Virus record (IMG/VR): IMGVR_UViG_3300025929_000014
Coordinates: 1-64,000 of that record
Source: a virus
Reading direction: 5' to 3' (one strand)
Length of the DNA stretch: 64,000 nt
Shown here one piece after another: positions 15,935 through 37,297 of this stretch; within the stretch, counting starts at the first letter, position 1, and each line of letters begins with the position of its first letter. Under the pieces are notes generated by a model that did no database searches, was not told the DNA's origin, and worked only from the letters and a program-made list of their open reading frames with translations. The position numbers were made by a program, and so were the translations under genes.

Positions 15935-16162
15935 TTAGGCGGCGGCGGTCGCGTCCTCCTCGTCCAGGGCGGCGAGCATGGCGGCGGTCGCGTCCTGCCA
16001 CGTCTGGCGGATGGCTTCGAGCAGGCCGGTAGCCGCTGGTAGGGTGGCGCCCGCTGGACGTGGGCGGCTCATGTACTCTTCGATGAGCATGCACAGCAAG
16101 GAGGCGTCCATTGTTGGGGCTGGGCTGATGGGGGTGGCTGGGCTGATCGGCAGGATGGTCAT
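15935..16162 (-). CDS. Small hypothetical protein (last gene of ORFan array)
   Basis: A 75-residue protein with a Pro-rich N terminus (TILPISPATPISPAP) and an Ala-rich amphipathic helix at the end. ATG 16162 has AAGGAG nine bases upstream. It is driven by the array promoter at 16203-16232. The function is unknown. Confidence 0.55.
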   Translation of the reverse strand: MTILPISPATPISPAPTMDASLLCMLIEEYMSRPRPAGATLPAATGLLEAIRQTWQDATAAMLAALDEEDATAAA

Positions 16163-16202
16163 GGCCTGGACTCCTTGGCTAGCGGTGCGTCTCACTGACT
16201 CT

Positions 16203-16236
16203 AGTATGCGGCTGAATGTCTCCCCCTTGCAACATT
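16203..16236 (-). promoter_or_regulatory. Array promoter for 15935-16162
   Basis: On the minus strand: GAATGTTGCAA core with -35 TTGCAA (16232-16227), an 18-base spacer and -10 CATACT (16208-16203). A GTCTCCCCCTTG/CAAGGGGGAGAC inverted repeat (about 16220-16255) spans the -35, so a terminator-like hairpin for the preceding gene overlaps the promoter. Confidence 0.65.
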
Positions 16237-16265
16237 CGCGCTACAAGGGGGAGACGGTCGGCGGC

Positions 16266-16469
16266 TTAGCAGCGATGGTAGTGGTACGCGTCATTCGCTT
16301 GGCGTGTCTCGCGCTGGATATTCGCCCAGCACGCGTTCTGTGCGTAGCAGGCCATGGTCGCCTCGTCCATCGTGCGCACGACTATGGGGCGCTCGATTTG
16401 GAGCGTATCGACCACGATGTAGACCGTGCGGAAGATCCGGCGTGACATGCGGACGGTGAAGCGTGCCAT
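16266..16469 (-). CDS. Small basic hypothetical protein
   Basis: A 67-residue protein beginning MARFTVRMSRRIFRTVYIVV. It is basic at the start and has scattered Cys and His at the end (CYAQNACW, YHYHRC). GAAGGAG lies nine bases before the ATG. It has its own array promoter at 16523-16552. Confidence 0.55.
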   Translation of the reverse strand: MARFTVRMSRRIFRTVYIVVDTLQIERPIVVRTMDEATMACYAQNACWANIQRETRQANDAYHYHRC

Positions 16470-16522
16470 GATGTTGACTCCTTCGCGCTGGGGAGGCGTC
16501 TCATTCGCGCCTCACATTCCCT

Positions 16523-16556
16523 ACTATGGGGGTGGAGGTTGTCCCCTTGCAACATT
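16523..16556 (-). promoter_or_regulatory. Array promoter for 16266-16469
   Basis: Minus strand -35 TTGCAA (16552-16547), 18-base spacer, -10 CATAGT (16528-16523). The GTTG-N8-CAAC dyad is present. A 12-base inverted repeat CCCCTTGCAACA/TGTTGCAAGGGG (about 16543-16572) spans the -35. Confidence 0.7.
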
Positions 16557-16580
16557 GGGGTGTTGCAAGGGGAGTATGGT

Positions 16581-16787
16581 CTACGACGCACGGCACGGTT
16601 TGCCGTCTGCGTCGGTCAGATGCACGATGAACTCCCCCTCGCGATATCCGGCACGTATGGCCGCAATGCGCGCCTCACGCGAATACTTGAAGAATCGTCG
16701 CGCCCCACTAAGCCCCCTCAGATAGCGCCCCTCGACGGATTGGACGATGAAGCCCTTAGTTGGCGTGCCCGCAAGTGTATAGAACAT
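16581..16787 (-). CDS. Small hypothetical protein
   Basis: A 68-residue basic protein (KYSREARIAAIRAGYREGEF) of unknown function. AAGGAG is seven bases before the ATG. There is no promoter in the 52 bases upstream, so it is expected to be cotranscribed with 16840-17154. Confidence 0.5.
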   Translation of the reverse strand: MFYTLAGTPTKGFIVQSVEGRYLRGLSGARRFFKYSREARIAAIRAGYREGEFIVHLTDADGKPCRAS

Positions 16788-16839
16788 GGTGTGCTCCTTG
16801 TGGTCCGTACGGCCGGACCTACGCCCCTATCGTGCTCGA

Positions 16840-17154
16840 TTACTCTGGATAGACTAGGCCGGTGATGGTGGTGGCAATAATGACGGTATCTTGATCGTAG
16901 CTACTCACCTCGACGTGCATCGTGCCACCGGTCGGCGCGTCCAGGGAATATTCGGTGATGTAGGACATGATCTCCTTGGCGGATAGGCCGTCAATGCTGA
17001 GGTAGAAGCCGAACCCTTGCAGCGTGATAGCAGGCTCAAGATGTACCGGACCTTGCCCGCGCTGTACCGCGATGCGATGCGCCGCATTGGAGACTTCTAG
17101 CGCGAATGTCATAGCCGCGTGAATCTGTACCTGAGCGCGATTCTCGATTGCCAT
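16840..17154 (-). CDS. Small hypothetical protein
   Basis: A 104-residue protein with alternating helical and beta-rich parts, starting MAIENRAQVQIHAAM. ATG 17154 was chosen because CAAGGAG lies ten bases upstream and the longer frame would run into the promoter. No family is recognised. Confidence 0.55.
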   Translation of the reverse strand: MAIENRAQVQIHAAMTFALEVSNAAHRIAVQRGQGPVHLEPAITLQGFGFYLSIDGLSAKEIMSYITEYSLDAPTGGTMHVEVSSYDQDTVIIATTITGLVYPE

Positions 17155-17207
17155 GGTCTTGACTCCTTGTGCCGTTGTGGAGGCGTCTCGTCCGCCCCTC
17201 ACTTACC

Positions 17208-17241
17208 ACTATGGGGGAGGATGTCTCCCCCATACAACATT
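17208..17241 (-). promoter_or_regulatory. Array promoter for 16840-17154 and 16581-16787
   Basis: Minus strand -35 TTGTAT (17237-17232), 18-base spacer, -10 CATAGT (17213-17208). The spacer itself is an inverted repeat, GGGGGAG-N5-CTCCCCC, that could act as an operator or hairpin. Confidence 0.65.
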
Positions 17242-17251
17242 CGGGCTGAGG

Positions 17252-17488
17252 CTATAGCGCTTGCGCGTCCGCATACACCTTTAGATCGGTGTAATAGCCG
17301 CTCAGATTGCCGCCGTCGGTCATAAGGTTACGAATCATCTTGATCGCCCGCTCTTGCGCTGCTGCCTCATCACGTAGGCCGTGTATGTTGGCGTCCAGCG
17401 TGAAGGTTGGCACTTGCCGCGTACTCGTCCAGCCGTCCGAACGCGTGCAAACTATCTGTGCAGTGATCCGGTACTGTGTGGCGTCCAT
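17252..17488 (-). CDS. Small hypothetical protein
   Basis: A 78-residue protein starting MDATQYRITAQIVCTRSDGW. It looks like a small beta-alpha domain (two strands, then an ERAIKMIRNL helix) of the kind common in this array. GAGGAG precedes the ATG. It has its own promoter at 17545-17574. Confidence 0.55.
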   Translation of the reverse strand: MDATQYRITAQIVCTRSDGWTSTRQVPTFTLDANIHGLRDEAAAQERAIKMIRNLMTDGGNLSGYYTDLKVYADAQAL

Positions 17489-17544
17489 ATCTGGTGTGCT
17501 CCTCGTGTGCTAGTGGCCGGTCACTGTTGCCGTCCGCATTCCCC

Positions 17545-17578
17545 ATACTGGGGGAGCATGACTCCCCCCGTCAACATT
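17545..17578 (-). promoter_or_regulatory. Array promoter for 17252-17488
   Basis: Minus strand GAATGTTGACG core: -35 TTGACG (17574-17569), 18-base spacer, -10 CAGTAT (17550-17545). The spacer holds the inverted repeat GGGGGAG-N5-CTCCCCC. Confidence 0.75.
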
Positions 17579-17582
17579 CAGC

Positions 17583-18158
17583 CTAGCGAATCCACACACC
17601 GTTATCGTATGCTGCTACTTCCGTAGCCGGTCCCCATGTGCCTCGTACTGGCATGCGCCAGACTGTCACCTGTCCGCGTTGTGGCTGTGACTCGCTGGCT
17701 TCCTGTGCGAATGTGCGCGCCTCCTCCTCAGTCGCAAACCACGCGGGCAATCCTGCACTAGTCTCCATCTCGCCTGAACGGTTGTACACCGCATACTCGA
17801 CGTTAGGCGTAGGCTCGTTACCGTCCGCGTACTCGTCCATGCTATCCATGGCGTGTCGGCATTCGCCCGTGCTCAGGTGACAATACGGCTCAATTTCGGC
17901 GCATACATGACGCGGACGGCGAGCCGGTGTATTCGCAAGCTCGATAGCCTTCTCCTGTGCAATGGCGCGCAAGGCGTCCGCCACCTGTAGCATAACCGTG
18001 CCTGCTACCAGAGACGCCATGCCGGTATCAGGATCTCGCTCCTGTACGTTCGCCATGTTGTCAGAGGCGAGCGTAAAACGGTCGTCATAGCAGGATAGCA
18101 GCACTAGCGCCGCTGCTAGGTCGTCCAGACAATCCGTCGCGATCTTGATGAATGCCAT
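17583..18158 (-). CDS. Hypothetical protein
   Basis: A 191-residue acidic protein. The N-terminal half is helical (ALVLLSCYDDRFTLASDNMANV) and matches the feel of phage DUF-type accessory proteins; the C-terminal half has an AWFATEEEARTFAQEASE helix flanked by strands. ATG 18158 has GGAGAA upstream. Its stop is 13 bases before the promoter core at 17574. Confidence 0.5.
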   Translation of the reverse strand: MAFIKIATDCLDDLAAALVLLSCYDDRFTLASDNMANVQERDPDTGMASLVAGTVMLQVADALRAIAQEKAIELANTPARRPRHVCAEIEPYCHLSTGECRHAMDSMDEYADGNEPTPNVEYAVYNRSGEMETSAGLPAWFATEEEARTFAQEASESQPQRGQVTVWRMPVRGTWGPATEVAAYDNGVWIR

Positions 18159-18206
18159 GTCATGTTCTCCGTCTCGCTCGTGGCCGGTCAGCGCCGACCT
18201 GTTCCC

Positions 18207-18239
18207 AGTATGGGCCTTGTGTTGCTCCCCCACAACATT
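18207..18239 (-). promoter_or_regulatory. Array promoter for 17583-18158
   Basis: Minus strand -35 TTGTGG (18235-18230), 17-base spacer, -10 CATACT (18212-18207), with the GTTG-N8-CAAC dyad. A CTCCCCCA/TGGGGGAG inverted repeat (about 18225-18254) spans the -35 and could end the upstream transcript. Confidence 0.65.
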
Positions 18240-18266
18240 CGCGTTATGGGGGAGCCGTCGCATTGT

Positions 18267-18800
18267 CTATGCACTCCTGTGCTTAGGCTGGCACCATTCC
18301 GGCATGGTCAAACCGTACTCTTTAACGATAGCTCGCCGCCTCTGTACGCGTTGCCGTTGCGCTTGCCTATCCTCACGCCGGTCGAATCGCCGGTTATGTG
18401 CGTTGCGTGCGCGCATCTTCTCGTATTCACCGGAGGCGTGCTTGGCTTCATCGTCCGCGTAGGGTTCAGGACGGCAATCCTCACATTCGCACCATTCGCG
18501 CTGCTCAAGATCGTCGCTATCCTTGGTACATATCGCGTTGAAGATGATGCGATGGCAACAGTCGCAATAGGTGATGCGCAGATCTTCGTAGTTGTCGGTA
18601 TTCAGGAGCATATACCGGAGAGAACCACCCGGCTTGATACGCATACCAACGATGCGCGGATGGTCGCCATCCCAATCTTGCGTCCAAGGGTACAAGGAGT
18701 CGAAGCACGCATGACAGACGATGGTGTTTACGTCGTGGTCCGAACGGCTGTAGTCTGTGCGGATGCACTCGAACGCGTCGATTGGGTAGAGGCGTGGCAC
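18267..18800 (-). CDS. Cysteine-rich hypothetical protein with basic tail
   Basis: A 177-residue protein. Cysteine pairs at CHAC, CDCCH and C-x-C-x2-C (CECEDC) suggest a zinc-binding core; the last ~60 residues are very basic (RREDRQAQRQRVQRRRA), so nucleic-acid binding is possible. I chose GTG 18800 because GAAGGAG lies eight bases upstream. Confidence 0.55.
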   Translation of the reverse strand: MPRLYPIDAFECIRTDYSRSDHDVNTIVCHACFDSLYPWTQDWDGDHPRIVGMRIKPGGSLRYMLLNTDNYEDLRITYCDCCHRIIFNAICTKDSDDLEQREWCECEDCRPEPYADDEAKHASGEYEKMRARNAHNRRFDRREDRQAQRQRVQRRRAIVKEYGLTMPEWCQPKHRSA

Positions 18801-18855
18801 GGTCGTTCTCCTTCTCGCTTGGGGGAGAAGCTCGCTTGCCCTCCCCACACTTCTA

Positions 18856-18888
18856 ACTATGGGCCATCGGTTTACCGGATGCAACATT
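18856..18888 (-). promoter_or_regulatory. Array promoter for 18267-18800
   Basis: Minus strand GAATGTTGCAT core: -35 TTGCAT (18884-18879), 17-base spacer, -10 CATAGT (18861-18856). Confidence 0.65.
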
Positions 18889-18890
18889 CG

Positions 18891-19082
18891 CTACAGACGT
18901 ATGGTGTACTCAATAGTGGGCGTGCCCGCGCCGGAAAGGTCGAACCCGCGTACTTCCGCCTCGTCGTATCCGCCAGTGTCTATGGCAGATCGCGCTGCGC
19001 GCTTTGCATCCGCCAGTGTCGCGTAGGGTGAAAGGTCTTCTACCAGATTACCATCTACAAAGAGCCATACTTCATATTCCAT
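18891..19082 (-). CDS. Small hypothetical protein
   Basis: A 63-residue acidic protein MEYEVWLFVDGNLVED with a beta-alpha-beta look (strand, LADAKRAARSAI helix, strand). ATG 19082 follows GAGGGGAGATCGACCG, the same leader as the next gene upstream. Its function is unknown. Confidence 0.5.
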   Translation of the reverse strand: MEYEVWLFVDGNLVEDLSPYATLADAKRAARSAIDTGGYDEAEVRGFDLSGAGTPTIEYTIRL

Positions 19083-19096
19083 CGGTCGATCTCCCC

Positions 19097-19321
19097 TCAG
19101 ATAGAGCCTTGACATCGCGTGCATGTCGCGCCGTCCAGCGTAACCGGCATGTAATGCCAGTGATTGATCTCTCCTCGCTCCCAGTTACGTGGGTGCATCA
19201 CCGCGTCTCGACATGGCTTGCAATGCACTTGCCCGCTACCATCAGGTATCTGGATATACTCCATATTGCCGTCGGGATGTGTGACCAGATCCAGGTTTGC
19301 CGTCATGTATGCTGCTGCCAT
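19097..19321 (-). CDS. Small hypothetical protein with CxxC pairs
   Basis: A 74-residue protein with CKPC and CTRC pairs separated by about 30 residues, a likely zinc ribbon. The ribosome site and leader (GGAGAGATCGACCG) are nearly identical to those of the following gene. Confidence 0.5.
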   Translation of the reverse strand: MAAAYMTANLDLVTHPDGNMEYIQIPDGSGQVHCKPCRDAVMHPRNWERGEINHWHYMPVTLDGATCTRCQGSI

Positions 19322-19345
19322 CGGTCGATCTCTCCTCGTGTGGCC

Positions 19346-19372
19346 GGGAGCTTCATCCTTGCGGAAGCTCCC
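19346..19372 (-). terminator. Hairpin after 19388-20116
   Basis: GGGAGCTTcatccttgcgGAAGCTCCC forms an 8-9 bp stem just after the stop of the 242-residue gene. There is no clear T run, so termination is not certain. Confidence 0.4.
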
Positions 19373-19387
19373 ACATCGCGACGTGTG

Positions 19388-20116
19388 CTATGCCTCTGGA
19401 TGGCGCGAATCGTAGATAACCTCGTTGTTGTAGCTATCGCCAGATGGGCACATGTAGCGAACCTGTACAACCACGTCCGCGTACTCAGGATCTAGCGCAA
19501 GCTCTTTTGCATGCGAGATGGCGTCGTCTTGCTCGCCGTCCTGATACTCTCGTACCCGCATGGCCGGTCCACATCCGTACTGAAACCTATCGTAGCGGTC
19601 CCATTTTTGGGGGTTTTTGTTGGCGAATCTCTCCGGTACTGCGACTACCATCAGGCAATCTTGACCGAGCCGGATTAGCGCTTTGCAATCGTCGCAGTAG
19701 ATGGCGTGCTCGTAATCCTGGATGTGCGAATAGCACACATGCAGATCATCTGGGCCAAGCTCGCCAGCCATCAGCGCCTTACGTGCGCAATCTAGGCACA
19801 TCTCCTCACCATTGCTGTTCAGATCCGCCACCCAATCGCCGCTGATCTCAAGGTCGTCGTAGCCAGAGAAGCCGACATTGCGCGAAGACCAGCCGTAGGT
19901 CTGATTGTCCAGTAGTGCGGTGAGATTACTCACAATCTGCGCGTAGGTGGTGTACTTGCCTTGCGCGTCGATGTAGCGATGCCATTCGGGCGTCTGCGTG
20001 CCCGTCCATTCGACCTTGCGCGCTTCCATCAGCTTGGCGTAGCGGCCTGCCTGTAGGGCGGCCATGTGGCGCGTGTGGATGGCTTGCTGGCGGTCAGTCT
20101 TCTCGATGGCGGCCAT
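19388..20116 (-). CDS. Hypothetical protein with CxxC motifs
   Basis: A 242-residue protein. The middle has two CxxC pairs (CLDC, CDDC) with nearby histidines, probably one zinc site. The rest is unrecognised. ATG 20116 has GAAGGAG eight bases upstream; a longer frame would pass through the promoter at 20174-20203. Confidence 0.5.
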   Translation of the reverse strand: MAAIEKTDRQQAIHTRHMAALQAGRYAKLMEARKVEWTGTQTPEWHRYIDAQGKYTTYAQIVSNLTALLDNQTYGWSSRNVGFSGYDDLEISGDWVADLNSNGEEMCLDCARKALMAGELGPDDLHVCYSHIQDYEHAIYCDDCKALIRLGQDCLMVVAVPERFANKNPQKWDRYDRFQYGCGPAMRVREYQDGEQDDAISHAKELALDPEYADVVVQVRYMCPSGDSYNNEVIYDSRHPEA

Positions 20117-20173
20117 GGTGTGTGCTCCTTCTTGCGTCTCGCGCTCCGTCGTTCGGTGCGCCTCACATTCCCC

Positions 20174-20207
20174 ATACTGGGGGTGTAAGGCGCATGCCGT
20201 CAACATT
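20174..20207 (-). promoter_or_regulatory. Array promoter for 19388-20116
   Basis: Minus strand GAATGTTGACG core: -35 TTGACG (20203-20198), 18-base spacer, -10 CAGTAT (20179-20174), followed by GGGGAATGTGAGG, a downstream block shared by several cassettes. Confidence 0.75.
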
Positions 20208-20210
20208 CGA

Positions 20211-20483
20211 TTATGCCTTGCGTGCTATCTGTTCGGGATAGAGGCTTGCGCGCCATGTCGTGTAGGGATGCTCGACACTGCCGTATGTCGCGCCGTCGAA
20301 CTCCACCAATACAAAGCAATGTCGATTGCCCCTCACTGGCGGTACGTCCGGGTTTATGACGCGTGCCGTCTGGCCCTTGCGGAGCCATTGCGTGGGATTG
20401 CCAGCATAACCGGAGTAATAGGCTTCCACATCGGCACCAACGATCACCACGTCGCCGGGTTGTAGCTGTGTCCGTCGCACCAT
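20211..20483 (-). CDS. Small beta-rich hypothetical protein
   Basis: A 90-residue protein starting MVRRTQLQPGDVVIVGADVE. The many Val/Gly turns (VVIVG, KGQTARVINPD) suggest an SH3-like barrel. ATG 20483 has AAGGAG upstream. The function is not known. Confidence 0.5.
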   Translation of the reverse strand: MVRRTQLQPGDVVIVGADVEAYYSGYAGNPTQWLRKGQTARVINPDVPPVRGNRHCFVLVEFDGATYGSVEHPYTTWRASLYPEQIARKA

Positions 20484-20504
20484 GGCCGTTCTCCTTCTAC
20501 CAGA

Positions 20505-20537
20505 GGGAGCCATCCAATGTGGCTCCCTGTCAACATT
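20505..20537 (-). promoter_or_regulatory. Degenerate array cassette with hairpin, before 20211-20483
   Basis: The GAATGTTGACA core (20537-20528) is present but no -10 hexamer stands 17-18 bases away. Instead GGGAGCCA-N7-TGGCTCCC (20506-20527) forms a hairpin. It may be a terminator plus operator-only site. Confidence 0.4.
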
Positions 20538-20541
20538 CGAT

Positions 20542-21186: not shown

Positions 21187-21236
21187 GTTCGCGTTCCTTC
21201 CGACTAAGTGCGGCATCCGTTCGTGCCGCACTTCCT

Positions 21237-21269
21237 ACTATGGGCTATCGGTTTACTGGGTGCAACATT
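21237..21269 (-). promoter_or_regulatory. Array promoter for 20542-21186
   Basis: Minus strand -35 TTGCAC (21265-21260), 17-base spacer, -10 CATAGT (21242-21237). Its spacer closely resembles that of the cassette at 18856, suggesting recent duplication. Confidence 0.65.
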
Positions 21270-21781
21270 CAGACGATATGTCGGCGGACCTTGCACATTC
21301 TGGCGCTGTTGTCCAGGCTGATGCGGGAGTCTACGATAAACCGCATACGCTTGGGCTTCTCAGCCGTGCCACGCGTGATGATTAGGTACAGCATGTCATG
21401 ATGCAGTGACGCATCGTTAAGAAGCTGGTTGTTGTTCCCGGCCATGTACTCGACCGTTAGCTTGTCGCCCACCTTGAGCAAATCAATCAGCGCGCCGAGC
21501 GTTCCCAGATCGTCGTACTTGTAGCGGGTGACGGAATCCACAGCAGCGTACACCTCGTAGCATCCATAGTCGTCGCCTAGATCCCCCTGATAGCAACGCG
21601 TAGCGGTTACTACGTTAATGCGATGGCGTTGCTCCCATGGGTTCTTGTCGTCCGCCTCCTTGTAGGCTTCGACATAAGATTCGTTCTTGTCCCGGTCATA
21701 CCGGAAGATCGCTCTATCGCATGTCTTGAGCCGTGCGATGTCTTGGGCGGTGATGGCGTAGGGCTCCTGGTAGGCGTCCAT
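21269..21781 (-). CDS. Hypothetical protein
   Basis: A 170-residue protein, acidic in the middle, ending with a basic MCKVRRHIV. The stretch KVGDKLTVEYMAGNNNQLL and the strands around it suggest a beta-barrel. Nothing is recognised. It has its own promoter at 21835-21863. Confidence 0.5.
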   Translation of the reverse strand: MDAYQEPYAITAQDIARLKTCDRAIFRYDRDKNESYVEAYKEADDKNPWEQRHRINVVTATRCYQGDLGDDYGCYEVYAAVDSVTRYKYDDLGTLGALIDLLKVGDKLTVEYMAGNNNQLLNDASLHHDMLYLIITRGTAEKPKRMRFIVDSRISLDNSARMCKVRRHIV

Positions 21782-21801
21782 TGTGCTGTACTCCTGTTTG
21801 A

Positions 21802-22014
21802 CTAGCGGCGCGTCGTTCGCGCCTCACATTCCCCATACTGAGGCTTCCGTTGCATCCCGTCAACATTGGGCGCAAGATCCGTCATCATCCAGACGGAGAC
21901 AAACGGCTCCGGGCTGTTGTCCAGGCCGTAATCGTGCGGCCAGTCTCGACCAGTGATGAAGGATAGTGCATGTTGGCGACTAGCGCCCTCGTGGCGTGTG
22001 GCGAGCTTTGCCAT
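21802..22014 (-). CDS. Small hypothetical protein whose 3' end is the next promoter
   Basis: A 70-residue frame. Its last ~20 codons (APNVDGMQRKPQYGE) are written by the array promoter at 21835-21863, so coding and promoter sequence coincide. The first 45 residues are ordinary. It could be a gene extended by insertion of a promoter cassette before its original stop. Confidence 0.45.
   Translation of the reverse strand: MAKLATRHEGASRQHALSFITGRDWPHDYGLDNSPEPFVSVWMMTDLAPNVDGMQRKPQYGECEARTTRR
21835..21867 (-). promoter_or_regulatory. Array promoter for 21269-21781
   Basis: Minus strand -35 TTGACG (21863-21858), 17-base spacer, -10 CAGTAT (21840-21835), GTTG-N8-CAAC dyad present. It lies inside the 3' end of 21802-22014. 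Confidence 0.7.
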
Positions 22015-22019
22015 TTTCT

Positions 22020-22283: not shown

Positions 22284-22287
22284 TGTC

Positions 22288-22560: not shown

Positions 22561-22582
22561 CGTCCTATCCCTTCAGGTGAGG

Positions 22583-22608: not shown

Positions 22609-22621
22609 TCTTGCAGCGCGA

Positions 22622-23090: not shown

Positions 23091-23486
23091 TCAACTATTG
23101 GCCTTGCGTTGTCGGGATGCAACTTTCAGCAAAGACTCGTAATTGTGCAGAGCATTCTGGAGGTGCCGCGTAAAAGCGCGCTGTTGCTGCTCCAGCCCCT
23201 CGATCTGTACCATCGCGGCGTCACGCAGCCGTTTCAGACCATCGCACACCATCTGGTATGCTTCGGCGTCGTATTCAGCCAGGTAATACATGTTCTGGGT
23301 GAAACGCTCGTATGTCTGATCCAGGTGGTAGTACGCACCCCTGATGCCCTCAGCGTTGATTTGCGACCGGAGTACGGCAGTGTACAGGGGGTGATCTACA
23401 ACTTTCGGTCCAGACTCGTGCCAGTTCTTGTATTGCTGGCGCGAGGCGCGTTGACGTTGCCGCTCGCGCCGTCGATGTTCACGCAT
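23091..23486 (-). CDS. Hypothetical basic coiled-coil protein
   Basis: A 131-residue protein: a very basic N terminus (REHRRRERQRQRASRQQY) followed by a long helical region with GLEQQQRAFTRHLQNAL. The frame ends inside the promoter at 23094-23122 (its stop is part of the -10 region). Nucleic-acid binding is possible but unproven. Confidence 0.5.
   Translation of the reverse strand: MREHRRRERQRQRASRQQYKNWHESGPKVVDHPLYTAVLRSQINAEGIRGAYYHLDQTYERFTQNMYYLAEYDAEAYQMVCDGLKRLRDAAMVQIEGLEQQQRAFTRHLQNALHNYESLLKVASRQRKANS
23094..23126 (-). promoter_or_regulatory. Array promoter for 22622-23035
   Basis: Minus strand GAAAGTTGCAT core: -35 TTGCAT (23122-23117), 17-base spacer, -10 AATAGT (23099-23094), with GTTG-N8-CAAC. 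It overlaps the 3' end of 23091-23486. Confidence 0.7.
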
Positions 23487-24436: not shown

Positions 24437-24470
24437 ACTCTGAGCCTTACTGTTGTTCCCCGTCAACATT
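24437..24470 (-). promoter_or_regulatory. Array promoter for 24126-24383 and 23504-24139
   Basis: Minus strand GAATGTTGACG core: -35 TTGACG (24466-24461), 18-base spacer, -10 CAGAGT (24442-24437), GTTG-N8-CAAC dyad. The stop of 24447-24749 lies within the spacer. Confidence 0.7.
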
Positions 24471-24749
24471 CCAGGCATAGTCCTTGATTTCGGCCATGGT
24501 TTGTAGGACAGCGATCAGTTGATATGGTTGCGTGTACGGCAGCTTCAGCAAAGCACAGGCGGTGTTTGCCAGATGCGCGTGCATGCCGTCAAGAATACCG
24601 TCGTCCTCCTGCCCGCTCTCGCGAAACCTATCTGCATAATCCAGAGCGGCCTTGAGATCTTCACGCACCTGGCGAGCACCCGCACCGTCACAGCCCCAAG
24701 CACCCCGCAACAGGACGAAAATACGCCCTCCTAGCACTAGCTTGCTCAT
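24447..24749 (-). CDS. Small hypothetical protein
   Basis: A 100-residue protein with a helical core (VREDLKAALDYADRFRES). Its last codons (WNVDGEQQ) are written by the promoter core, so the stop is inside the promoter. Function unknown. It overlaps the upstream gene by four bases. Confidence 0.5.
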   Translation of the reverse strand: MSKLVLGGRIFVLLRGAWGCDGAGARQVREDLKAALDYADRFRESGQEDDGILDGMHAHLANTACALLKLPYTQPYQLIAVLQTMAEIKDYAWNVDGEQQ

Positions 24750-25929: not shown

Positions 25930-25963
25930 ACTCTGGGCCTGGAAGGCGACACCCGTCAACTTT
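25930..25963 (-). promoter_or_regulatory. Array promoter for the 25874-24447 operon
   Basis: Minus strand GAAAGTTGACG core: -35 TTGACG (25959-25954), 18-base spacer, -10 CAGAGT (25935-25930), followed by AGGGAATGTGAGG. Confidence 0.7.
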
Positions 25964-25967
25964 CGAT

Positions 25968-27635: not shown

Positions 27636-27669
27636 ATGCTGGGCCTTGAAGTGGTCAGGGCGCAACTTT
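27636..27669 (-). promoter_or_regulatory. Array promoter for 27319-27558 and downstream genes
   Basis: Minus strand GAAAGTTGCGC core: -35 TTGCGC (27665-27660), 18-base spacer, -10 CAGCAT (27641-27636). Confidence 0.65.
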
Positions 27670-27671
27670 CG

Positions 27672-28935: not shown

Positions 28936-28969
28936 ATACTGGGCGTAGATGTTGTAGGGCGTCAAGTTT
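28936..28969 (-). promoter_or_regulatory. Array promoter for the 28909-27672 operon
   Basis: Minus strand GAAACTTGACG core: -35 TTGACG (28965-28960), 18-base spacer, -10 CAGTAT (28941-28936), CTTG-N8-CAAC dyad. Confidence 0.7.
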
Positions 28970-29472
28970 CAGTTGTATGGCAAATCGTAATACTGCACTT
29001 CGTCGGTCACGTCGATATTCTTGCGCCACGGAAAATCATTGGCGCATGCAGCCTTCTCCCAGTAAGCACCCCTGAACCACTGGCTCACACGCTTGGCCTG
29101 GTCGCAGTAGTAGCGGTAGCGACGCTCGACCTTACGGCTATCGCTGTCGTAGTTCATCTGCTGGCACCAGTCCTCAAACCCAGTGCCGGGATACTCACGC
29201 CAGCGCTCCAGGACTTGATAGAGCACATGCTCGACGAAATCCGGCCCACCATCGCTTCCAATATCGGCTCGATACAACGTGACCGTCAAACGCCCCTTGG
29301 TATCGCCGCGCCGGAGGACAACCTGAACCCACTTGAAGGCATCATAGTCTGGATCGCTCCAGGTCTCCTTATCTTCCAGGTTGCCGCGCAGGGCTTCAGG
29401 CGGAAGGTCCACATGCTTCGCGCCGATCACCTCTATCTGGTGACTAGCGATGAACTCAGCCAGCTTGCTCAT
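28969..29472 (-). CDS. Hypothetical protein
   Basis: A 167-residue protein MSKLAEFIASHQIEVIGAKHV, with a beta-rich middle and a C-terminal helical, Tyr/Arg-rich segment. Unrecognised. It overlaps the basic protein gene upstream by 17 bases and ends at the promoter core. Confidence 0.5.
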   Translation of the reverse strand: MSKLAEFIASHQIEVIGAKHVDLPPEALRGNLEDKETWSDPDYDAFKWVQVVLRRGDTKGRLTVTLYRADIGSDGGPDFVEHVLYQVLERWREYPGTGFEDWCQQMNYDSDSRKVERRYRYYCDQAKRVSQWFRGAYWEKAACANDFPWRKNIDVTDEVQYYDLPYN

Positions 29473-31354: not shown

Positions 31355-31398
31355 GTCGCTTCCTTTCCTGTGGGGCGAACCGCTCGCCCCTGGATTCC

Positions 31399-31432
31399 AT
31401 GTTGGGGGATCAGGTTGTGGGGGTGCAACTTT
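31399..31432 (-). promoter_or_regulatory. Array promoter for the 31354-28969 operon
   Basis: Minus strand GAAAGTTGCAC core: -35 TTGCAC (31428-31423), 18-base spacer, -10 CAACAT (31404-31399), GTTG-N8-CAAC dyad. It overlaps the 3' end of 31410-31847. Confidence 0.65.
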
Positions 31433-31847
31433 CGCGATAGATGGGTTCGAGTATCTTGACGCCCGTCAGATGGAAGAGCGCGATATGCCCGCCCACAAGC
31501 TCGCGCCCATCCAGATTGGTGAAGTGCTCCTGTGTACGGGGGTTGTAGCGGCAGTGCGCCTCGCTTTGATGCAGCGCGGACGTGAGGTAGGCCAGATGGC
31601 CCACGATACCCGCATGGACTGACTTTCGTCCAGTACGCAGCACGCGCTGTCGGCCAGCTTCGGAGACGCGGAAGGCAAGAGGGCCATAGATATGAAACGT
31701 CCGCATATGCGCGATGACTCTCCCGCTCCGAGTGCCGGTCAGGGCCTTGACGCTCCAGCAGTCCTGCCGAAGATTGCGGTAGACGTAGACTCTGCCTTTG
31801 CCGGGAGCGTACTCCTCGTAGTCGTCTTCGGTGAGCGGGCCGATCAT
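31410..31847 (-). CDS. Conserved phage/bacterial family protein of unknown function
   Basis: A 145-residue protein. VYVYRNLRQDCWSVK at the start, RVIAHMRTFHI in the middle and FRVSEAGRQRVLRTGRKSVH with AGIVGHL at the end match a widespread phage and bacterial family of unknown function ('N...+k.wSv.........V.ah...+...dv.f.VseaGR.RVl.e+kknVHA.v.G'). Its last codons lie in the promoter at 31399-31428. Confidence 0.65.
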   Translation of the reverse strand: MIGPLTEDDYEEYAPGKGRVYVYRNLRQDCWSVKALTGTRSGRVIAHMRTFHIYGPLAFRVSEAGRQRVLRTGRKSVHAGIVGHLAYLTSALHQSEAHCRYNPRTQEHFTNLDGRELVGGHIALFHLTGVKILEPIYRESCTPTT

Positions 31848-32544: not shown

Positions 32545-32768
32545 GACAGCCTCCCGTCGAGCGCGAGATGGAGCATGTCGCCAAACACCTCATGGCTACG
32601 ACGCGTCTGCTCATCCTGTTGGCGGAACGCCATCTGCTGGAAGTCGGTCAAACTCTCAACCTGCTCGCGCAGACGCCGGATCTCGCCGGCCATCATCTGC
32701 ATGGCGTCAGCCTGGGCGCTCACTCGTGCAGTCTGCTGCAAACAAAACTGCCATTCTTCGTCGTTCAT
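32541..32768 (-). CDS. Small coiled-coil protein
   Basis: A 75-residue helical protein, with ARVSAQADAMQMMAGEIRR and LREQVESL heptads, likely a dimeric coiled coil. First gene of the operon after the promoter at 32794-32822. Confidence 0.5.
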   Translation of the reverse strand: MNDEEWQFCLQQTARVSAQADAMQMMAGEIRRLREQVESLTDFQQMAFRQQDEQTRRSHEVFGDMLHLALDGRLS

Positions 32769-32793
32769 TTCCTCTCCTTTCGGCTACATTTCC

Positions 32794-32826
32794 AGCATGG
32801 GCCTTGCGTTGTCAGCGATCAACTTT
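32794..32826 (-). promoter_or_regulatory. Array promoter for the 32768-31410 operon
   Basis: Minus strand GAAAGTTGATC core: -35 TTGATC (32822-32817), 17-base spacer, -10 CATGCT (32799-32794), GTTG-N8-CAAC dyad. Confidence 0.7.
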
Positions 32827-33494
32827 CAGGCTGGGCTGATACCGGCAGCCGTGCGGATGAAGTCGCCGGTCGGGATACCATAGAACTGCATCTGCCCACC
32901 CAGCGCCGGAAGGAGCGGAACTTTCAGCGCGCCTACCCGGTCGTAAGGCGGCGCGGCCAGCACGTTGTACCAGGCAGGGTACGCGTAGTCAGAGAGCCAA
33001 TACTTCGAGCCGTTGTAGGCGAAGCCGTCTTCTGAGGGGCCGGTGGGATCGGCGACCTCGCCCACCACGTTGACGGGGCTGCCATTGATGGTCTCCGGGA
33101 ACGCGCTGCTCATCTGCGGATCGACGGTGGATTCCACTACCTCATGGCTCGCCGCCAGGAGCCAAGAATCTGGTAGGGCCGCAGGATTGATCGCCACATA
33201 GGCAATCGGCATACCGTTTTCCTGCGTGTGATAATCGCCCTTGTCAGCCGTCAGCACGACGATAATCGGCACCGGCAGCAGATGCCAATGTTGCGCTACA
33301 TCCGTCTGAAGCCACGCCCGGAGGATCTCCTGACCGCGCAGGGCATCATCAACCGATACCCGATCCGGCACCACCGTGACGATATACACGGACGGCCTCG
33401 ACGATGTGGGCGCGCTCAGAGAATCAGGAAGCCAGGGGCAGGTGAACGCAGCCAGGAAGACCAGGGCCGCATAGAGGGCCGTTTTACGCTTCAT
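32826..33494 (-). CDS. Secreted protein with HEVVE/GEVAD metalloprotease-like motif
   Basis: A 222-residue protein with a signal peptide (MKRKTALYAALVFLAAFTC, likely cleaved near LSA). The mature part has SHEVVESTVDP around residue 115 and a downstream VGEVADP, the pattern (HE...E..tDP, GEi.D) of secreted proteins related to plant EXORDIUM/PHI-1 and metallopeptidase-like families. It would work outside the cytoplasm. The start ATG 33494 overlaps the upstream stop. A secreted protein amid intracellular-looking ORFans is unusual. The function is inferred. Confidence 0.6.
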   Translation of the reverse strand: MKRKTALYAALVFLAAFTCPWLPDSLSAPTSSRPSVYIVTVVPDRVSVDDALRGQEILRAWLQTDVAQHWHLLPVPIIVVLTADKGDYHTQENGMPIAYVAINPAALPDSWLLAASHEVVESTVDPQMSSAFPETINGSPVNVVGEVADPTGPSEDGFAYNGSKYWLSDYAYPAWYNVLAAPPYDRVGALKVPLLPALGGQMQFYGIPTGDFIRTAAGISPA

Positions 33495-34134: not shown

Positions 34135-34390
34135 TTGTGTTCTCCTCAGCCCACTCGGCGTCGTAATGGCGTTCGGCGCGCTCCACGACATCTTCCGGCG
34201 AAATGTTCTTGGTGTCACACCAGTGCATGATGTTGGCGATCAGGTCGGTCGCCAGGGATTCCAACTCGCTGTCGTCGGAAACCTCATTCAATGACTGGCC
34301 ACCATACGCATGCTGCGCGAAGGCTTCCAGGGCGGTGATAACAGAGCGGGCACGCCCCTCGTTGGTCAGTACGTTGCCATTCTCATCCAT
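34127..34390 (-). CDS. Small phage protein, tandem paralogue (DLI..MHWCD family)
   Basis: An 87-residue protein with LATDLIANIMHWCDTKNISPEDVVERAERHYDAEW. It is a paralogue of the next gene upstream (34383-34613). The 'DLi.dl.HWCd..g.d......a..Hy..E' motif is common in small phage proteins of unknown function. ATG 34390 overlaps the upstream gene by eight bases (ATGGATGA). Confidence 0.65.
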   Translation of the reverse strand: MDENGNVLTNEGRARSVITALEAFAQHAYGGQSLNEVSDDSELESLATDLIANIMHWCDTKNISPEDVVERAERHYDAEWAEENTNG

Positions 34391-34613
34391 GTGCGTTCTC
34401 CTGCTCATATTCATAATTCTCACGCGCTAGCCGAAGCACGCGCTCGGTGTCCATATTATGAACCTGGCACCAATGCAACACGTCGGTGATGAGGTCAGCC
34501 GCCGCACAATCACGGTCGTTAGGAAACATCTGCATAAATGTAGGGCTGTGCAGCTCTAACGCCGCCTGTACACGCTTTGCGGCAGTCTCCGGTGTCTGTG
34601 CATCTTCATCCAT
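34383..34613 (-). CDS. Small phage protein, tandem paralogue (DLI..LHWCQ family)
   Basis: A 76-residue protein with AAADLITDVLHWCQVHNMDTERVLRLARENYEYE, aligning with 34127-34390 across its second half. Both genes end EN-x-x-G and overlap the following gene by the same ATGGATGA, so the duplication includes the junction. Function unknown. Confidence 0.65.
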   Translation of the reverse strand: MDEDAQTPETAAKRVQAALELHSPTFMQMFPNDRDCAAADLITDVLHWCQVHNMDTERVLRLARENYEYEQENAHG

Positions 34614-35034
34614 GTGCGTAGACCTCCTCTTCTCTTAGCGCGTCGTCAGTCGTCGCGCCTTCTGTTTCCATACTGGGGGTTGAGGTTGTCAGGTTGCAAC
34701 TTTGGGCGCATGCAGAAGCGAGTCCGGCCAGCATCTCATCGCGTGTGATATTGATTTCCGACCACAGCAGATCTTCACAGAGAAAATCATCCCAGGCTCT
34801 TGGCGTATCCAGGCGGCTTGCATACACGCTATCATTAAACGCCTCAGCTGCTAGCCAACCACACGTCTCCAGCATGTACTCATAGAGCGCCGTTGGCATG
34901 CCCAACGGCCCGCGCTGGAAACGATGTTTCTCCGGCTTGCTCTCCACCCAGCGCCGGAAGAGGACGGGATTATAGACCTCAGCCAGGATAGCTTCGATTG
35001 GGGGCACCTGTGGGCGCATGGCGTCAGCTTCCAT
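34606..35034 (-). CDS. Hypothetical protein carrying an internal promoter
   Basis: A 142-residue protein. Residues about 75-110 (RAWDDFLCEDLLWSEINI then MLAGLASAC) are similar to 35024-35353 (GWDNFLWQDAPQEL). The last ~35 codons, from QSCNLTTSTPSMETEG on, are the array promoter at 34670-34699 read in frame. The cassette is therefore embedded in the gene. No known function. Confidence 0.55.
   Translation of the reverse strand: MEADAMRPQVPPIEAILAEVYNPVLFRRWVESKPEKHRFQRGPLGMPTALYEYMLETCGWLAAEAFNDSVYASRLDTPRAWDDFLCEDLLWSEINITRDEMLAGLASACAQSCNLTTSTPSMETEGATTDDALREEEVYAHG
34670..34703 (-). promoter_or_regulatory. Array promoter for the 34613-32826 operon
   Basis: Minus strand CAAAGTTGCAA core: -35 TTGCAA (34699-34694), 18-base spacer, -10 CAGTAT (34675-34670), GTTG-N8-CAAC dyad. 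It lies inside 34606-35034. Confidence 0.7.
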
Positions 35035-35353
35035 CTGTGTGATGCTTCAGGATACGGCGAATCTCCGTCGCGTTCGTCCCGGCGTGCAAAGCGGGATCGG
35101 TAAGCTGTGCCAGTCGGTGTTCTAATGCGATGACGGCCAGCACCACGATGCGCTCCGTCTCCTCGCCGGAGAAGTGCTCGTGCTGTAATTCCTGCGGCGC
35201 ATCCTGCCAGAGAAAGTTGTCCCAGCCGGACGTATTCATATCGGCCAGCGTATTGCGAATGGGATCTTCCTGATCGACGTTATCCGCAGACCAGTAGTAG
35301 AGGTATTGGCCGAGATAGGCTCCGGCCTGGTCAATGAGATTTCCCCTTGTCAT
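35024..35353 (-). CDS. Hypothetical protein, paralogue of 34606-35034
   Basis: A 109-residue protein. The middle SGWDNFLWQDAPQELQHEHF and the following helix align with RAWDDFLCEDLLWSE in the next gene, suggesting duplication and divergence. The rest is helical. It overlaps both neighbours. Confidence 0.5.
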   Translation of the reverse strand: MTRGNLIDQAGAYLGQYLYYWSADNVDQEDPIRNTLADMNTSGWDNFLWQDAPQELQHEHFSGEETERIVVLAVIALEHRLAQLTDPALHAGTNATEIRRILKHHTDGS

Positions 35354-35549
35354 AGTGTTCCTCCTTCTGCTCTCTTACCTCTGTCGCTCGTGCTTTGGTT
35401 GGCTCCCGATGCCATTTGTCGTCGTCTTCATGCGCCTGGAAGCGCTCGACGAACCTCCGGGCCTGCTCAGGACTGTCGGTCTCCACATCGTGAATCGTAA
35501 TGCCCTCGTAGACGACCCTAAAGAGATGTACGGAGTATTTCTTGGTCAT
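35331..35549 (-). CDS. Small beta-alpha protein of a repeated array type
   Basis: A 72-residue protein, MTKKYSVHLFRVVYEGITIHDVETDSPEQARRFVE, strand-strand-helix with the 'vetDSpEqA' segment, then a charged tail. Similar in plan to 26351, 27319 and 28709. It overlaps both neighbours. Confidence 0.5.
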   Translation of the reverse strand: MTKKYSVHLFRVVYEGITIHDVETDSPEQARRFVERFQAHEDDDKWHREPTKARATEVREQKEEHYDKGKSH

Positions 35550-35736
35550 AAGGCTCCCAGGTAGTCGTCTCGCTCAGCAGCATGGCCATCCCCCAGTCGA
35601 AGACCAGCCATACCTCTCCCGGTCTCCAGGCGGTGTCAACTTCCATCAGCGTGCCGGCACAGCTTTCGCCATTCGTCGTGACCAGAATCTCGTGGTCGAT
35701 CAATGCGCGCCAGGGCGCCAGTTGTTCCTCGCTCAT
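35518..35736 (-). CDS. Small beta-rich hypothetical protein
   Basis: A 72-residue protein, MSEEQLAPWRALIDHEILVTTNG, with a GTLMEVDTAWRPGEVWLVFD pair of strands. It could be a small Sm- or SH3-like barrel. Begins one base before the sigma-like gene's stop region. Confidence 0.5.
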   Translation of the reverse strand: MSEEQLAPWRALIDHEILVTTNGESCAGTLMEVDTAWRPGEVWLVFDWGMAMLLSETTTWEPYDQEILRTSL

Positions 35737-36000
35737 CTAGCCCCTCTTCTGCCTATAATACGGCATAAACTCGCTATCCTCTGGAAGAGGGCTGTCCTTA
35801 TGGCGGGAGAGCTTGCGGAGCGCTTTGGCCTCCATTTGGCGTATCCGCTCCGCGCTCCTTCCCTGCGTAAGGCCGACGGCCTCAAGCGTTTTCCCTTGCA
35901 TGCGCTGCCGAATCACATCTTGCTCCAGTGCATTCAGCATGCTGGTATGCGTTCGCGCATCGCGTTGTTGATTCCACTCCCGCGTTTCTTTTAACATCAT
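35737..36000 (-). CDS. Sigma-70 region 4-like transcription factor
   Basis: An 87-residue protein. Residues about 25-70 (ALEQDVIRQRMQGKTLEAVG, then GRSAERIRQMEAKALRKL) match sigma-70 region 4, the helix-turn-helix that contacts the -35 box ('..v...R..g.tLeevg..lg.s.eRvRQie.kAL.kLr'). Regions 2 and 3 are absent. Such proteins act as -35-binding activators, appropriators or anti-sigma factors. It is encoded at the promoter-proximal end of the ORFan array whose TTGAC-type boxes it might read; that link is inference. Confidence 0.7.
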   Translation of the reverse strand: MMLKETREWNQQRDARTHTSMLNALEQDVIRQRMQGKTLEAVGLTQGRSAERIRQMEAKALRKLSRHKDSPLPEDSEFMPYYRQKRG

Positions 36001-36002
36001 TG

Positions 36003-36260
36003 CTACGCCCTCACCACCGAAAACAGCGTTTCCGGCCTATAGAGGTCGCCGTCAATCGTGACCAGGCCGGTGCTGACCAGCTGCGCCATGCGATACTCGC
36101 AGTCCCAGACATCCTCTTCCCTGGCCGCATCCATCACGTCGCGCAGCCACGCGCCGCGCGAGTTAGCTCCCTGCGCCCCCTGCACATGCAGCAGCGCCGT
36201 ATACAGGCGCTGCGCCAGGGGATGATGATTCTCAATGGCTTCGGTTTGGAGCGGCCTCAT
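36003..36260 (-). CDS. Small hypothetical protein
   Basis: An 85-residue protein MRPLQTEAIENHHPLAQRLY, with an REEDVWDCEYRMAQLVSTGL stretch that looks like a small winged helix. ATG 36260 overlaps the upstream stop (ATGA). The function is unknown. Confidence 0.5.
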   Translation of the reverse strand: MRPLQTEAIENHHPLAQRLYTALLHVQGAQGANSRGAWLRDVMDAAREEDVWDCEYRMAQLVSTGLVTIDGDLYRPETLFSVVRA

Positions 36261-36466
36261 CCGATTATCACCATCCCAGCTGTACGCCGGTCCAGGCTTT
36301 GCAGACCAATGCTGACTAACAGCTCCTGGTTCACCAGATAGGTAGCCAGCTTCTCGCTGATTTCCAGATCGGCCACCAGGGTTGCTATGCGCTCCAAGCG
36401 CCTCTTTTCTGCCTCTTCCCGCGCGGCATCGGCCTCTTTCTGATCCCACCAAGTTTGCTGTCTCAT
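36257..36466 (-). CDS. Small coiled-coil protein
   Basis: A 69-residue protein with an N-terminal acidic/basic helix (EADAAREEAEKRRLERIATL) followed by a short domain. Overlaps neighbours by four bases. Not recognised. Confidence 0.5.
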   Translation of the reverse strand: MRQQTWWDQKEADAAREEAEKRRLERIATLVADLEISEKLATYLVNQELLVSIGLQSLDRRTAGMVIIG

Positions 36467-36657
36467 GCTGTCCAGTCTCCGTTCGCTGGGTTCATGCCAA
36501 CGTCCCGCATGGCGTCGGCCAGGTCCGGCATCTCCTCGCCGATGTCAAAGTCTTTTGACCAGATGGCGTAGTGCGCGAGAGACAGCGCCGCTTTCAGATG
36601 GCGAACCTCTCCCCGCAGCACTCGTATTTCCCGCACCTCCAATGTTTCTTCAGTCAT
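36463..36657 (-). CDS. Small hypothetical protein
   Basis: A 64-residue protein, MTEETLEVREIRVLRGEVRH, an amphipathic helix then MPDLADAMRDVG. ATG 36657 overlaps the upstream stop (ATGA). Function unknown. Confidence 0.5.
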   Translation of the reverse strand: MTEETLEVREIRVLRGEVRHLKAALSLAHYAIWSKDFDIGEEMPDLADAMRDVGMNPANGDWTA

Positions 36658-36860
36658 TCGCACCACCCCACGCCCCAGTCCTTGGCCTGCGCCATCGCCA
36701 AACGCCGTAGCTCCGGGTCGTCGATGTCAAGATCCAGCTGACACGCGCTGACGGCGAAGTCACACATGTCAAAGATGCAGGCTTTGCCGTGAATCACGTA
36801 TTCGTCCACGCCTTCGTCGGCCCAATAGGCTACCACTCTCTGCTTTGTCTCTGCGTCCAA
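36654..36860 (-). CDS. Small hypothetical protein
   Basis: A 68-residue acidic protein, MDAETKQRVVAYWADEGVDE, with FDMCDFAVSACQLDLDIDD in the middle. The gene follows 36861-37076 directly. Not recognised. Confidence 0.5.
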   Translation of the reverse strand: MDAETKQRVVAYWADEGVDEYVIHGKACIFDMCDFAVSACQLDLDIDDPELRRLAMAQAKDWGVGWCE

Positions 36861-37076
36861 TTAGTGTTTTCCTCCTTCAGCCCGTTGCAGGTCGCTATCC
36901 AACTTATCGCCGAGCAGCGCCATCGCTTCACCCAGCAGCGCATAGGCCGGCCGCCCATAGAACTCGGCAGCCGTCCGCACCATATCGCGCTCGAAGACCG
37001 GCAATAGCTCATACGCCCTCGCACACCACGCATCTCGACTTAGAATAGCTGTTGTGGTTGGTCGTCGCATGCTCAT
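36861..37076 (-). CDS. Small hypothetical protein, first gene of the leftward array
   Basis: A 71-residue, mostly helical, basic-to-acidic protein. ATG 37076 has AGGGGGA eight bases upstream; longer frames exist but lack a ribosome site. It is the promoter-proximal gene of the operon 37.08-34.6 kb. Confidence 0.5.
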   Translation of the reverse strand: MSMRRPTTTAILSRDAWCARAYELLPVFERDMVRTAAEFYGRPAYALLGEAMALLGDKLDSDLQRAEGGKH

Positions 37077-37212
37077 CGCTTTTCCCCCTTTGCCATATAA
37101 CGCGCTGTAGTGGGCCATAGCGCGATCTTTGCCTCTGACGGCGCTTTGGATGCCGGAGGATACCATTCTTGGTCACTCCGCCCGCCACGCTTGCGCTGGC
37201 GTCGTCTACCAC

Positions 37213-37241
37213 ACTATGCGCCATCCACGACGCGATGTCAA
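37213..37241 (-). promoter_or_regulatory. Strong promoter for the head of the leftward array
   Basis: Minus strand TTGACA (37241-37236), 17-base spacer, CATAGT (37218-37213). The -10 is the array type, but the flanking GAAwGTTG core is missing. It precedes 36861-37076 and is next to the putative origin. Confidence 0.65.
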
Positions 37242-37297
37242 GCATCGTTTGGTCCATTTGGAGGCAAAAGAGCCTGCGAGCGATGCCGAAAGAGTTG

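What the first reader, a model, noticed from the sequence alone, without database searches (positions are those of the whole stretch)
15935..37245. Distributed promoter/dyad array over some 50 ORFans
At 17 positions between 16.2 and 34.7 kb, next to gene starts, the minus strand carries GAAwGTTG(A/C), a 17-18-base spacer and a -10 of the form CAnAnT (CATAGT, CAGTAT, CATACT). Eight or nine also have GTTG-N8-CAAC, a 16-base dyad over the -35 and the start of the spacer. The elements are always on the transcribed strand, sit right after the preceding stop, and recur on the plus strand at 41.79, 48.25, 48.58 and 48.96 kb. This looks like a phage-wide regulon, comparable in principle to stoperators, but with promoter function built in.
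Basis: partly seen in the sequence, partly recalled or inferred. Interest (0 to 1): 0.85.

Follow-up and report, generated by a model that had tools for sequence, protein, structure and literature searches.

The report
Phage-wide array of operator-bearing promoters
A large temperate phage carries about 20 near-identical promoters, most with the same palindromic repressor-type binding site built into them, and further copies of that site beside its virion genes, so one regulator could probably switch the whole phage on or off, as known for a few other phages.

Summary
A two-block matrix finds 20 strong sites (17 between 16.2 and 34.7 kb on the minus strand, plus 40.54(-), 41.79(+) and 48.25(+)). 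The matching pattern gives 17 hits against 0.07 in shuffles. Nearly all sites have a short leader (about 20-72 nt) to a start codon with a ribosome-binding site.

The main correction is that GAAwGTTG is also one half of a 24-bp palindrome, GAAwGTTG-N8-CAACwTTC. GTTG-N8-CAAC is the only outlier among all 4-mer palindromes at 21 spacings (17 seen, 1.3 expected, p = 6e-14). Near-perfect copies also lie outside the array, several in short gaps before virion genes (portal, terminase, head protease), where no array-type promoter is visible.

Best explanation: operators for one dimeric regulator, most likely the lysogeny repressor. In the array the operator covers the -35 and half the spacer, so binding should exclude RNA polymerase. 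This works like the CIR sites of phiC31, SPBRE/MrpR of SPbeta and L5 stoperators. The unusual part is the fusion of one half-site with the -35 of a repeated promoter cassette.

Not shown: transcription, binding, the regulator's identity, and the host. No related genome with the motif was found.

The parts
16203..16237 (-). array promoter + operator (GAATGTTG..AGACATTC; -10 CATACT)
16523..16557 (-). array promoter + operator (CAATGTTG-N8-CAACCTCC; -10 CATAGT)
17208..17242 (-). array promoter + operator (-10 CATAGT; GC hairpin in spacer)
17545..17579 (-). array promoter + degenerate operator (-10 CAGTAT)
18207..18240 (-). array promoter + operator (GTTG-N8-CAAC; -10 CATACT)
18856..18889 (-). array promoter + partial operator (-10 CATAGT)
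20174..20208 (-). array promoter + partial operator (-10 CAGTAT)
20515..20538 (-). operator (GAATGTTG-N8-CCACATTG, 14/16) without a usable -10; hairpin
21237..21270 (-). array promoter + partial operator (-10 CATAGT)
21835..21868 (-). array promoter + operator (GTTG-N8-CAAC; -10 CAGTAT)
23094..23127 (-). array promoter + operator (-10 AATAGT)
24437..24471 (-). array promoter + operator (-10 CAGAGT)
25930..25964 (-). array promoter + partial operator (-10 CAGAGT)
27636..27670 (-). array promoter + operator (-10 CAGCAT); 72-nt leader with long hairpin
28936..28970 (-). array promoter + operator (CTTG-N8-CAACATCT; -10 CAGTAT)
31399..31433 (-). array promoter + operator (-10 CAACAT)
32794..32827 (-). 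array promoter + operator (-10 CATGCT)
34670..34704 (-). array promoter + operator (-10 CAGTAT)
41789..41822 (+). array-type promoter of the gene 41886-42962 (weak clamp-like match); left half-site only
48252..48286 (+). array-type promoter; left half-site only
48954..48987 (+). weaker array-type promoter before the exonuclease gene; no right half-site
48567..48600 (+). operator (48567-48590) over a TTGATT-17-TATAGT promoter of HTH_17 gene 48646-48894
5232..5255 (.). off-array operator (13/16) in the gap 19 nt before the portal gene, 9 nt after TATACT
7356..7379 (-). off-array operator (13/16) in the stretch between the attP-like site and the terminase gene
51672..51695 (+). off-array operator (14/16) after a terminator-like hairpin, no clear -10
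59569..59592 (+). off-array operator (15/16) at the 5' end of the methyltransferase ORF
35737..36000 (-). 87-aa stand-alone sigma70 region-4 protein (second candidate regulator)
41217..41732 (+). 171-aa HTH_17 protein with weak PKD-like C-terminus: candidate repressor, own TATGAT promoter and own terminator
48646..48894 (+). 82-aa HTH_17 protein whose promoter carries the operator: candidate regulated regulator

Best explanation
A temperate phage uses one dispersed palindromic operator, GAAwGTTG-N8-CAACwTTC, bound by a dimeric regulator (most likely the lysogeny repressor). In the early region the operator is fused to a repeated sigma70-type promoter cassette: the TTG of the left half-site is the -35, and the right half-site falls in the 17/18-bp spacer before a CAnnnT -10. 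Repressor and RNA polymerase therefore cannot occupy the site together. Each short operon of small genes has its own cassette, so silencing the prophage needs the operator at nearly every cassette. Further operators just before virion genes would shut late promoters or block read-through. When the repressor is lost, all cassettes fire together. Shown by sequence: the sites, the palindrome, its fixed spacing, its statistics and positions. Inferred: promoter activity, repression, dimer binding, and which protein binds.
For: Array far above chance. Unbiased test of all 4-mer palindromes at 21 spacings gives GTTG-N8-CAAC as the only outlier, p = 6e-14. 24-bp palindrome at 13 or more of 16 positions: 23 sites against 0.58 in shuffles, 0-2 at other spacers. 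Conservation peaks at spacer positions where polymerase is not expected to read bases, and CAAC keeps its distance from the -35 half, not from the -10. Where the inner right arm is degenerate the outer arm is kept (rho = -0.67, p = 0.0016 over 19 minus-strand sites), which suggests binding-site compensation. Leaders cluster at about 45-53 or 20-22 nt. Off-array operators sit in gaps before the portal, terminase and head protease genes. Tyrosine integrase and tRNA-Lys-like attP indicate a temperate phage. The same scan run on phiC31 finds 15 palindromes, mostly 9-66 nt after stop codons.
Against: Three plus-strand promoters (41789, 48252, 48954) keep the left half-site but have no right half above chance, so GAAwGTTG may be needed by polymerase or an activator regardless of a dimer site. 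Several array sites have only 3 of 8 right-half matches (18889, 21270). No perfect 16/16 palindrome exists. Some off-array matches (56185, 40004, 40115) lie in coding sequence and may be chance. No repressor was identified by homology; no transcripts or binding data; no related phage with the motif for a conservation test.
Confidence: 0.6

Rival explanations
1. The cassettes are activator-dependent: a phage protein, for example the 87-aa stand-alone sigma region-4 protein (35737-36000), recognises the extended -35 GAAwGTTG and recruits host polymerase to a weak CAnnnT -10. It would be made first from the TTGACA-17-CATAGT promoter at 37241-37213, which lacks GAAwG and the dyad.
For: GAAwGTTG is kept in promoters without the right half. 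C replaces T at -12 at almost every site, while the divergent 41.1-41.2 kb promoters have T there. The region-4 helix keeps ERIRQ but has A where sigma70 has R584. Its gene lies downstream of a promoter without the motif.
Against: The palindrome, its exact 8-bp spacing and its presence away from promoters point to a dimer site, which an activator of this kind does not explain. No direct evidence for the protein's role.
Confidence: 0.15
2. Plain sigma70 early promoters spread by duplication of one cassette; the dyad is inherited with the copies and has no regulator.
For: Some pairs share most of the element (18889/21270; 23127/32827).
Against: The right arm is kept while neighbouring spacer bases are not; inner/outer arm compensation; full palindromes occur without the promoter.
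Confidence: 0.13
3. The palindrome is a binding site of a host regulator, for example the host LexA, so the whole phage is under SOS or another host control.
For: Inverted tetramers 8 bp apart is the geometry of the E. coli LexA box (own knowledge); LexA boxes differ between phyla. The geometry itself.
Against: Host unknown, so untestable here; the sequence matches no LexA box known to me.
Confidence: 0.07
4. RNA-level elements: hairpins that end or protect the upstream transcripts and shield the next leader.
For: Strong hairpins overlap the element at 16237, 16557 and 18240 (z -4.3 to -5.5), with weaker ones at 17242 and 20538; leaders fold somewhat better than shuffles.
Against: Most array sites have no upstream hairpin (z near 0), and the hairpins have no U-tract; the conserved bases fit DNA elements. 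Probably an extra layer, not the main function.
Confidence: 0.05

Closest known systems
phiC31 (Streptomyces) repressor operators, the conserved inverted repeats (CIRs)
   Same: One palindrome repeated about 15 times, in early and late gaps, mostly shortly after stop codons. The same unbiased scan recovers them. Their role as repressor sites is from my own knowledge.
   Different: Different sequence (TACTCACGTGAGTA) with no gap; CIRs are nearly identical while these vary. No homologue of the phiC31 repressor here (best E 0.083). I did not test whether CIRs form part of a -35.
SPbeta repeated element (SPBRE) and its repressor MrpR
   Same: Large temperate phage with many genes of unknown function; one repressor binds about ten dispersed sites in promoter regions (PMC10516654).
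   Different: SPBRE is a 15-bp motif; MrpR has a tyrosine-recombinase fold. Only one PF00589 protein, the integrase itself, was found here.
Stoperators of cluster A mycobacteriophages (L5, TipsytheTRex)
   Same: More than 20 repressor sites across the genome, in promoters and in short gaps, oriented with transcription (PMC9283540).
   Different: Stoperators are asymmetric 13-mers bound by a monomer; these are palindromes, and off-array orientation is mixed.
Start-associated sequences (SAS/ESAS) of cluster K mycobacteriophages
   Same: Repeats at the starts of a subset of non-structural genes, about half with an imperfect inverted repeat (PMC3203893).
   Different: SAS is a 13-bp GGGATAGGAGCCC at the translation start; no promoter-like pair of boxes.
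T4 early promoters
   Same: Dozens of sigma70 promoters with an extended consensus in front of small genes (own knowledge).
   Different: No operator dyad; T4 is strictly lytic (own knowledge).

Membership tests
Dispersed-operator repression system of temperate phages (phiC31 CIR-like) | one palindromic motif repeated many times across the phage genome | tested here: met
Dispersed-operator repression system of temperate phages (phiC31 CIR-like) | sites in gaps of both early and late regions | tested here: met
   array 16-49 kb; 5232, 7356, 85487, 98496, 103481 in or next to virion gene gaps; a few further matches are in coding sequence
Dispersed-operator repression system of temperate phages (phiC31 CIR-like) | phage-encoded repressor that binds the motif and maintains lysogeny | not testable with these tools
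   only candidates: HTH_17 proteins at 41217-41732 and 48646-48894
Dispersed-operator repression system of temperate phages (phiC31 CIR-like) | homology to the phiC31 repressor | tested here: not met
   (best E 0.083)
Stoperators (cluster A mycobacteriophages) | asymmetric 13-bp site | tested here: not met
   24-bp palindrome
Stoperators (cluster A mycobacteriophages) | orientation follows transcription | tested here: inconclusive
   true for the whole array; off-array mixed, with 5232 and 103481 opposite
Stoperators (cluster A mycobacteriophages) | bound repressor stops elongation | not testable with these tools
   needs experiments
SPBRE/MrpR | repressor with tyrosine-recombinase fold | tested here: not met
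   one PF00589 protein only, the integrase beside the attP-like site; a diverged recombinase fold could be missed by sequence
sigma70-type promoter | -35 TTG plus A and T of the -10 at 17+/-1 bp, upstream of a ribosome-binding site | tested here: met
   C instead of T at -12 is atypical
sigma70-type promoter | transcription starts 6-9 nt downstream | not testable with these tools
   no RNA data
SAS/ESAS (cluster K) | 13-bp GGGATAGGAGCCC at translation starts | tested here: not met
   consensus differs (PMC3203893)

The most novel reading that the evidence does not exclude
A phage-encoded stand-alone sigma region-4 protein reads the extended -35 GAAwGTTG of the repeated cassette and replaces host region 4 there, while the repressor's dimer site has evolved from the same bases. 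Activator and repressor would thus compete for one half-site at about 20 promoters: a phage-wide regulon switched by -35 exchange.
Probability: 0.1. Interest if true: 0.75.

Novelty: new variant of a known kind. Interest (0 to 1): 0.5.

Why it matters
Few phages are known to silence themselves through dozens of dispersed operators instead of one control region. This would add an example from a lineage with no close sequenced relative found here, with a distinct design in which operator and -35 are one repeated cassette. It would explain how many small accessory genes can each carry their own promoter and still stay silent in a lysogen, which bears on how phages acquire and keep such genes. The operator sequence is defined well enough to test directly.

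Tried and rejected
No similar DNA in 50,697 phage records for 16.0-23.9 kb. Single-protein scans of IMG/VR (primase, helicase, integrase, HTH and sigma4 proteins) found no relatives. Portal relatives are distant (up to about 39% identity), in IMG/VR, Alicyclobacillus, Alphaproteobacteria and others, and none of the stretches fetched carries the array. A pattern scan of IMG/VR, which covered only the 18-bp-spacer class, gave one chance hit in a 40% GC contig. Host by attP: the tRNA-Lys 3' half has no match within 3 mismatches in 400 Chloroflexota genomes, nor in 12 and 22 other genomes; the best plasmid hits are alphaproteobacterial at 83-89%; unresolved. AlphaFold of the HTH_17 protein failed (pLDDT 35). 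GTTG-N8-CAAC at 95935 and 96514 was set aside as coding chance matches without GAAw. A second -10 dyad (CCCAnnnTGGG) was considered: the flanking C and G runs are real, but spacer variation of 17/18 fits polymerase better. No sigma region 2 in the genome and no Rfam match in the window.
Full report
What the window is. The window is bases 1-64000 of a 105,786-base virus record; the rest was read as loci L001-L003. It encodes a terminase and portal, a tyrosine integrase next to a stretch that reads as the 3' half of a tRNA-Lys(TTT) gene at about 7440-7485 (my reading; an attP-like site), replication genes (primase, helicase, exonuclease, Sak4, polA-type polymerase, RNA ligase) and, beyond the window, head and tail genes. 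It is a temperate tailed phage. Isolated phages show only distant protein relatives, no DNA relative of the array was found, and the host is unknown.

Check of the observation. A matrix built on 13 obvious sites and refined converges on 20 strong sites. All lie between 16.2 and 48.3 kb on the coding strand of the next gene; none of comparable score is in the structural half. Leave-one-out scores are 18.7-34.8, against an average best score of 14.2 per shuffled genome; the consensus regex gives 17 hits against 0.07 expected. TTGnnn to CAnnnT is 17 or 18 bp. Most leaders measure 35-58 nt from the inferred start to the start codon, with 11 of them at 45-53 nt, one of 72, and a second class of 20-22 nt; for 40539 the next called gene start is 223 nt away.

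What the dyad is. The CAAC arm sits at exactly 8 bp from GTTG and moves with the -35, not with the -10. Scanning every 4-mer palindrome at spacings 0-20 over the whole genome, GTTG-N8-CAAC is the single outlier: 17 copies, 1.3 expected, p = 6e-14 before a correction for about 5,400 tests. Extending it gives GAAwGTTG-N8-CAACwTTC; 23 genome positions match at 13 or more of 16, against 0.58 in shuffles and 0-2 for spacers of 4-7 and 9-12. In array sites with a poor inner arm (16237, 17242, 17579, 20208, 25964) the outer arm is better kept; the negative correlation over the 19 minus-strand sites (rho -0.67, p 0.0016) was looked for after seeing the data and should be weighed as such.

Operators outside the array. 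Good palindromes lie in the gap before the portal gene (5232-5255), in the stretch before the terminase (7356-7379), at 48567-48590 over a TTGATT-17-TATAGT promoter of a small HTH_17 gene, at 51672-51695, and in record coordinates beyond the window at 85487-85510, 98496-98519 (before the head-protease gene) and 103481-103504. Two of these follow a TATACT by 7-9 nt, so they would cover the start region of a different promoter; others have no visible promoter and could only act on read-through. Conversely, the promoters at 41789, 48252 and 48954 have the left half but no right half. Palindrome and promoter are therefore separable elements that share one half-site in the array. A few further matches in coding sequence (56185, 40004, 40115) may be chance.

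Mechanism. The centre of the palindrome lies near -30, and its 24 bp cover the -35 and the first half of the spacer. A dimer bound there should exclude sigma region 4, the classic position for a repressor. With about 20 separate short operons, a repressor must bind at nearly every cassette, and the extra sites before virion genes would close the late region. I put 0.6 on this. Candidates for the binding protein are the 171-aa HTH_17 protein (41217-41732), apparently monocistronic, divergent from the early leftward genes, with a TTGCAT-17-TATGAT promoter without the operator and a terminator behind it, and the 82-aa HTH_17 protein (48646-48894), whose promoter carries the operator. Neither is shown. 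An 87-aa stand-alone sigma region-4 protein is the obvious candidate for an activator; its operon starts at a TTGACA-17-CATAGT promoter without GAAwG (37241-37213).

Comparison with known systems. Running the same unbiased scan on phiC31 recovers 15 palindromes (TACTCACGTGAGTA), mostly 9-66 nt after stop codons in early and late regions; from my own knowledge these are the CIR sites of its repressor. That makes phiC31 a positive control for the method and the closest architectural parallel. The phiC31 repressor has no homologue here. SPBRE/MrpR of SPbeta (PMC10516654) is another parallel. L5-type stoperators (PMC9283540) are asymmetric and bound by a monomer, so membership fails on that feature although the logic is similar. 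The specific variant here is that one operator half-site doubles as the -35 of a repeated promoter.

RNA structure. GC-rich hairpins overlap the element at 16237, 16557 and 18240 (z -4.3 to -5.5), more weakly at 17242 and 20538, and not at most others. Leaders fold slightly better than shuffles (mean z -0.7; about -1 for the long leaders). I treat this as a secondary layer.

Limits. All promoter and operator functions are inferred from sequence. There is no second genome with the array for a conservation test. Gene starts come from a simple caller, which mis-set at least one start (18158 is used for 18240), and antisense calls in the structural half were judged by hand.

Noticed in passing
window 37260-37650: Noncoding AT-rich stretch just after the primase gene with many GCGGGACAG / CTGTCCCGC repeats: likely iterons of a replication origin.
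   Followed up: no
window 35737-36000 (-): Stand-alone sigma70 region-4 protein of 87 aa with A at the position of sigma70 R584; no other sigma domain found in the phage.
   Followed up: partly
window 41217-41732 (+): HTH_17 domain joined to a weak PKD-like domain, an unusual pairing; single-sequence structure prediction failed.
   Followed up: partly
window 7434-7485 (+): 3' half of a tRNA-Lys(TTT) gene including CCA next to the integrase: likely attP core; closest hits alphaproteobacterial (83-89%), none within 3 mismatches in the genomes tried.
   Followed up: partly
window 2502-5213 (-): The portal protein has a long C-terminal extension rich in repeated HQAGLQGQQAATQQGYALQSAS units.
   Followed up: no
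window 16200-20540: Strong GC hairpins merged with the promoter at several sites near the distal end of the array, some with the -35 in the loop; no U-tract.
   Followed up: partly
array leaders, 16-35 kb: Many 45-53 nt leaders begin with a short stem-loop with ACGA-type loops before the ribosome-binding site.
   Followed up: partly
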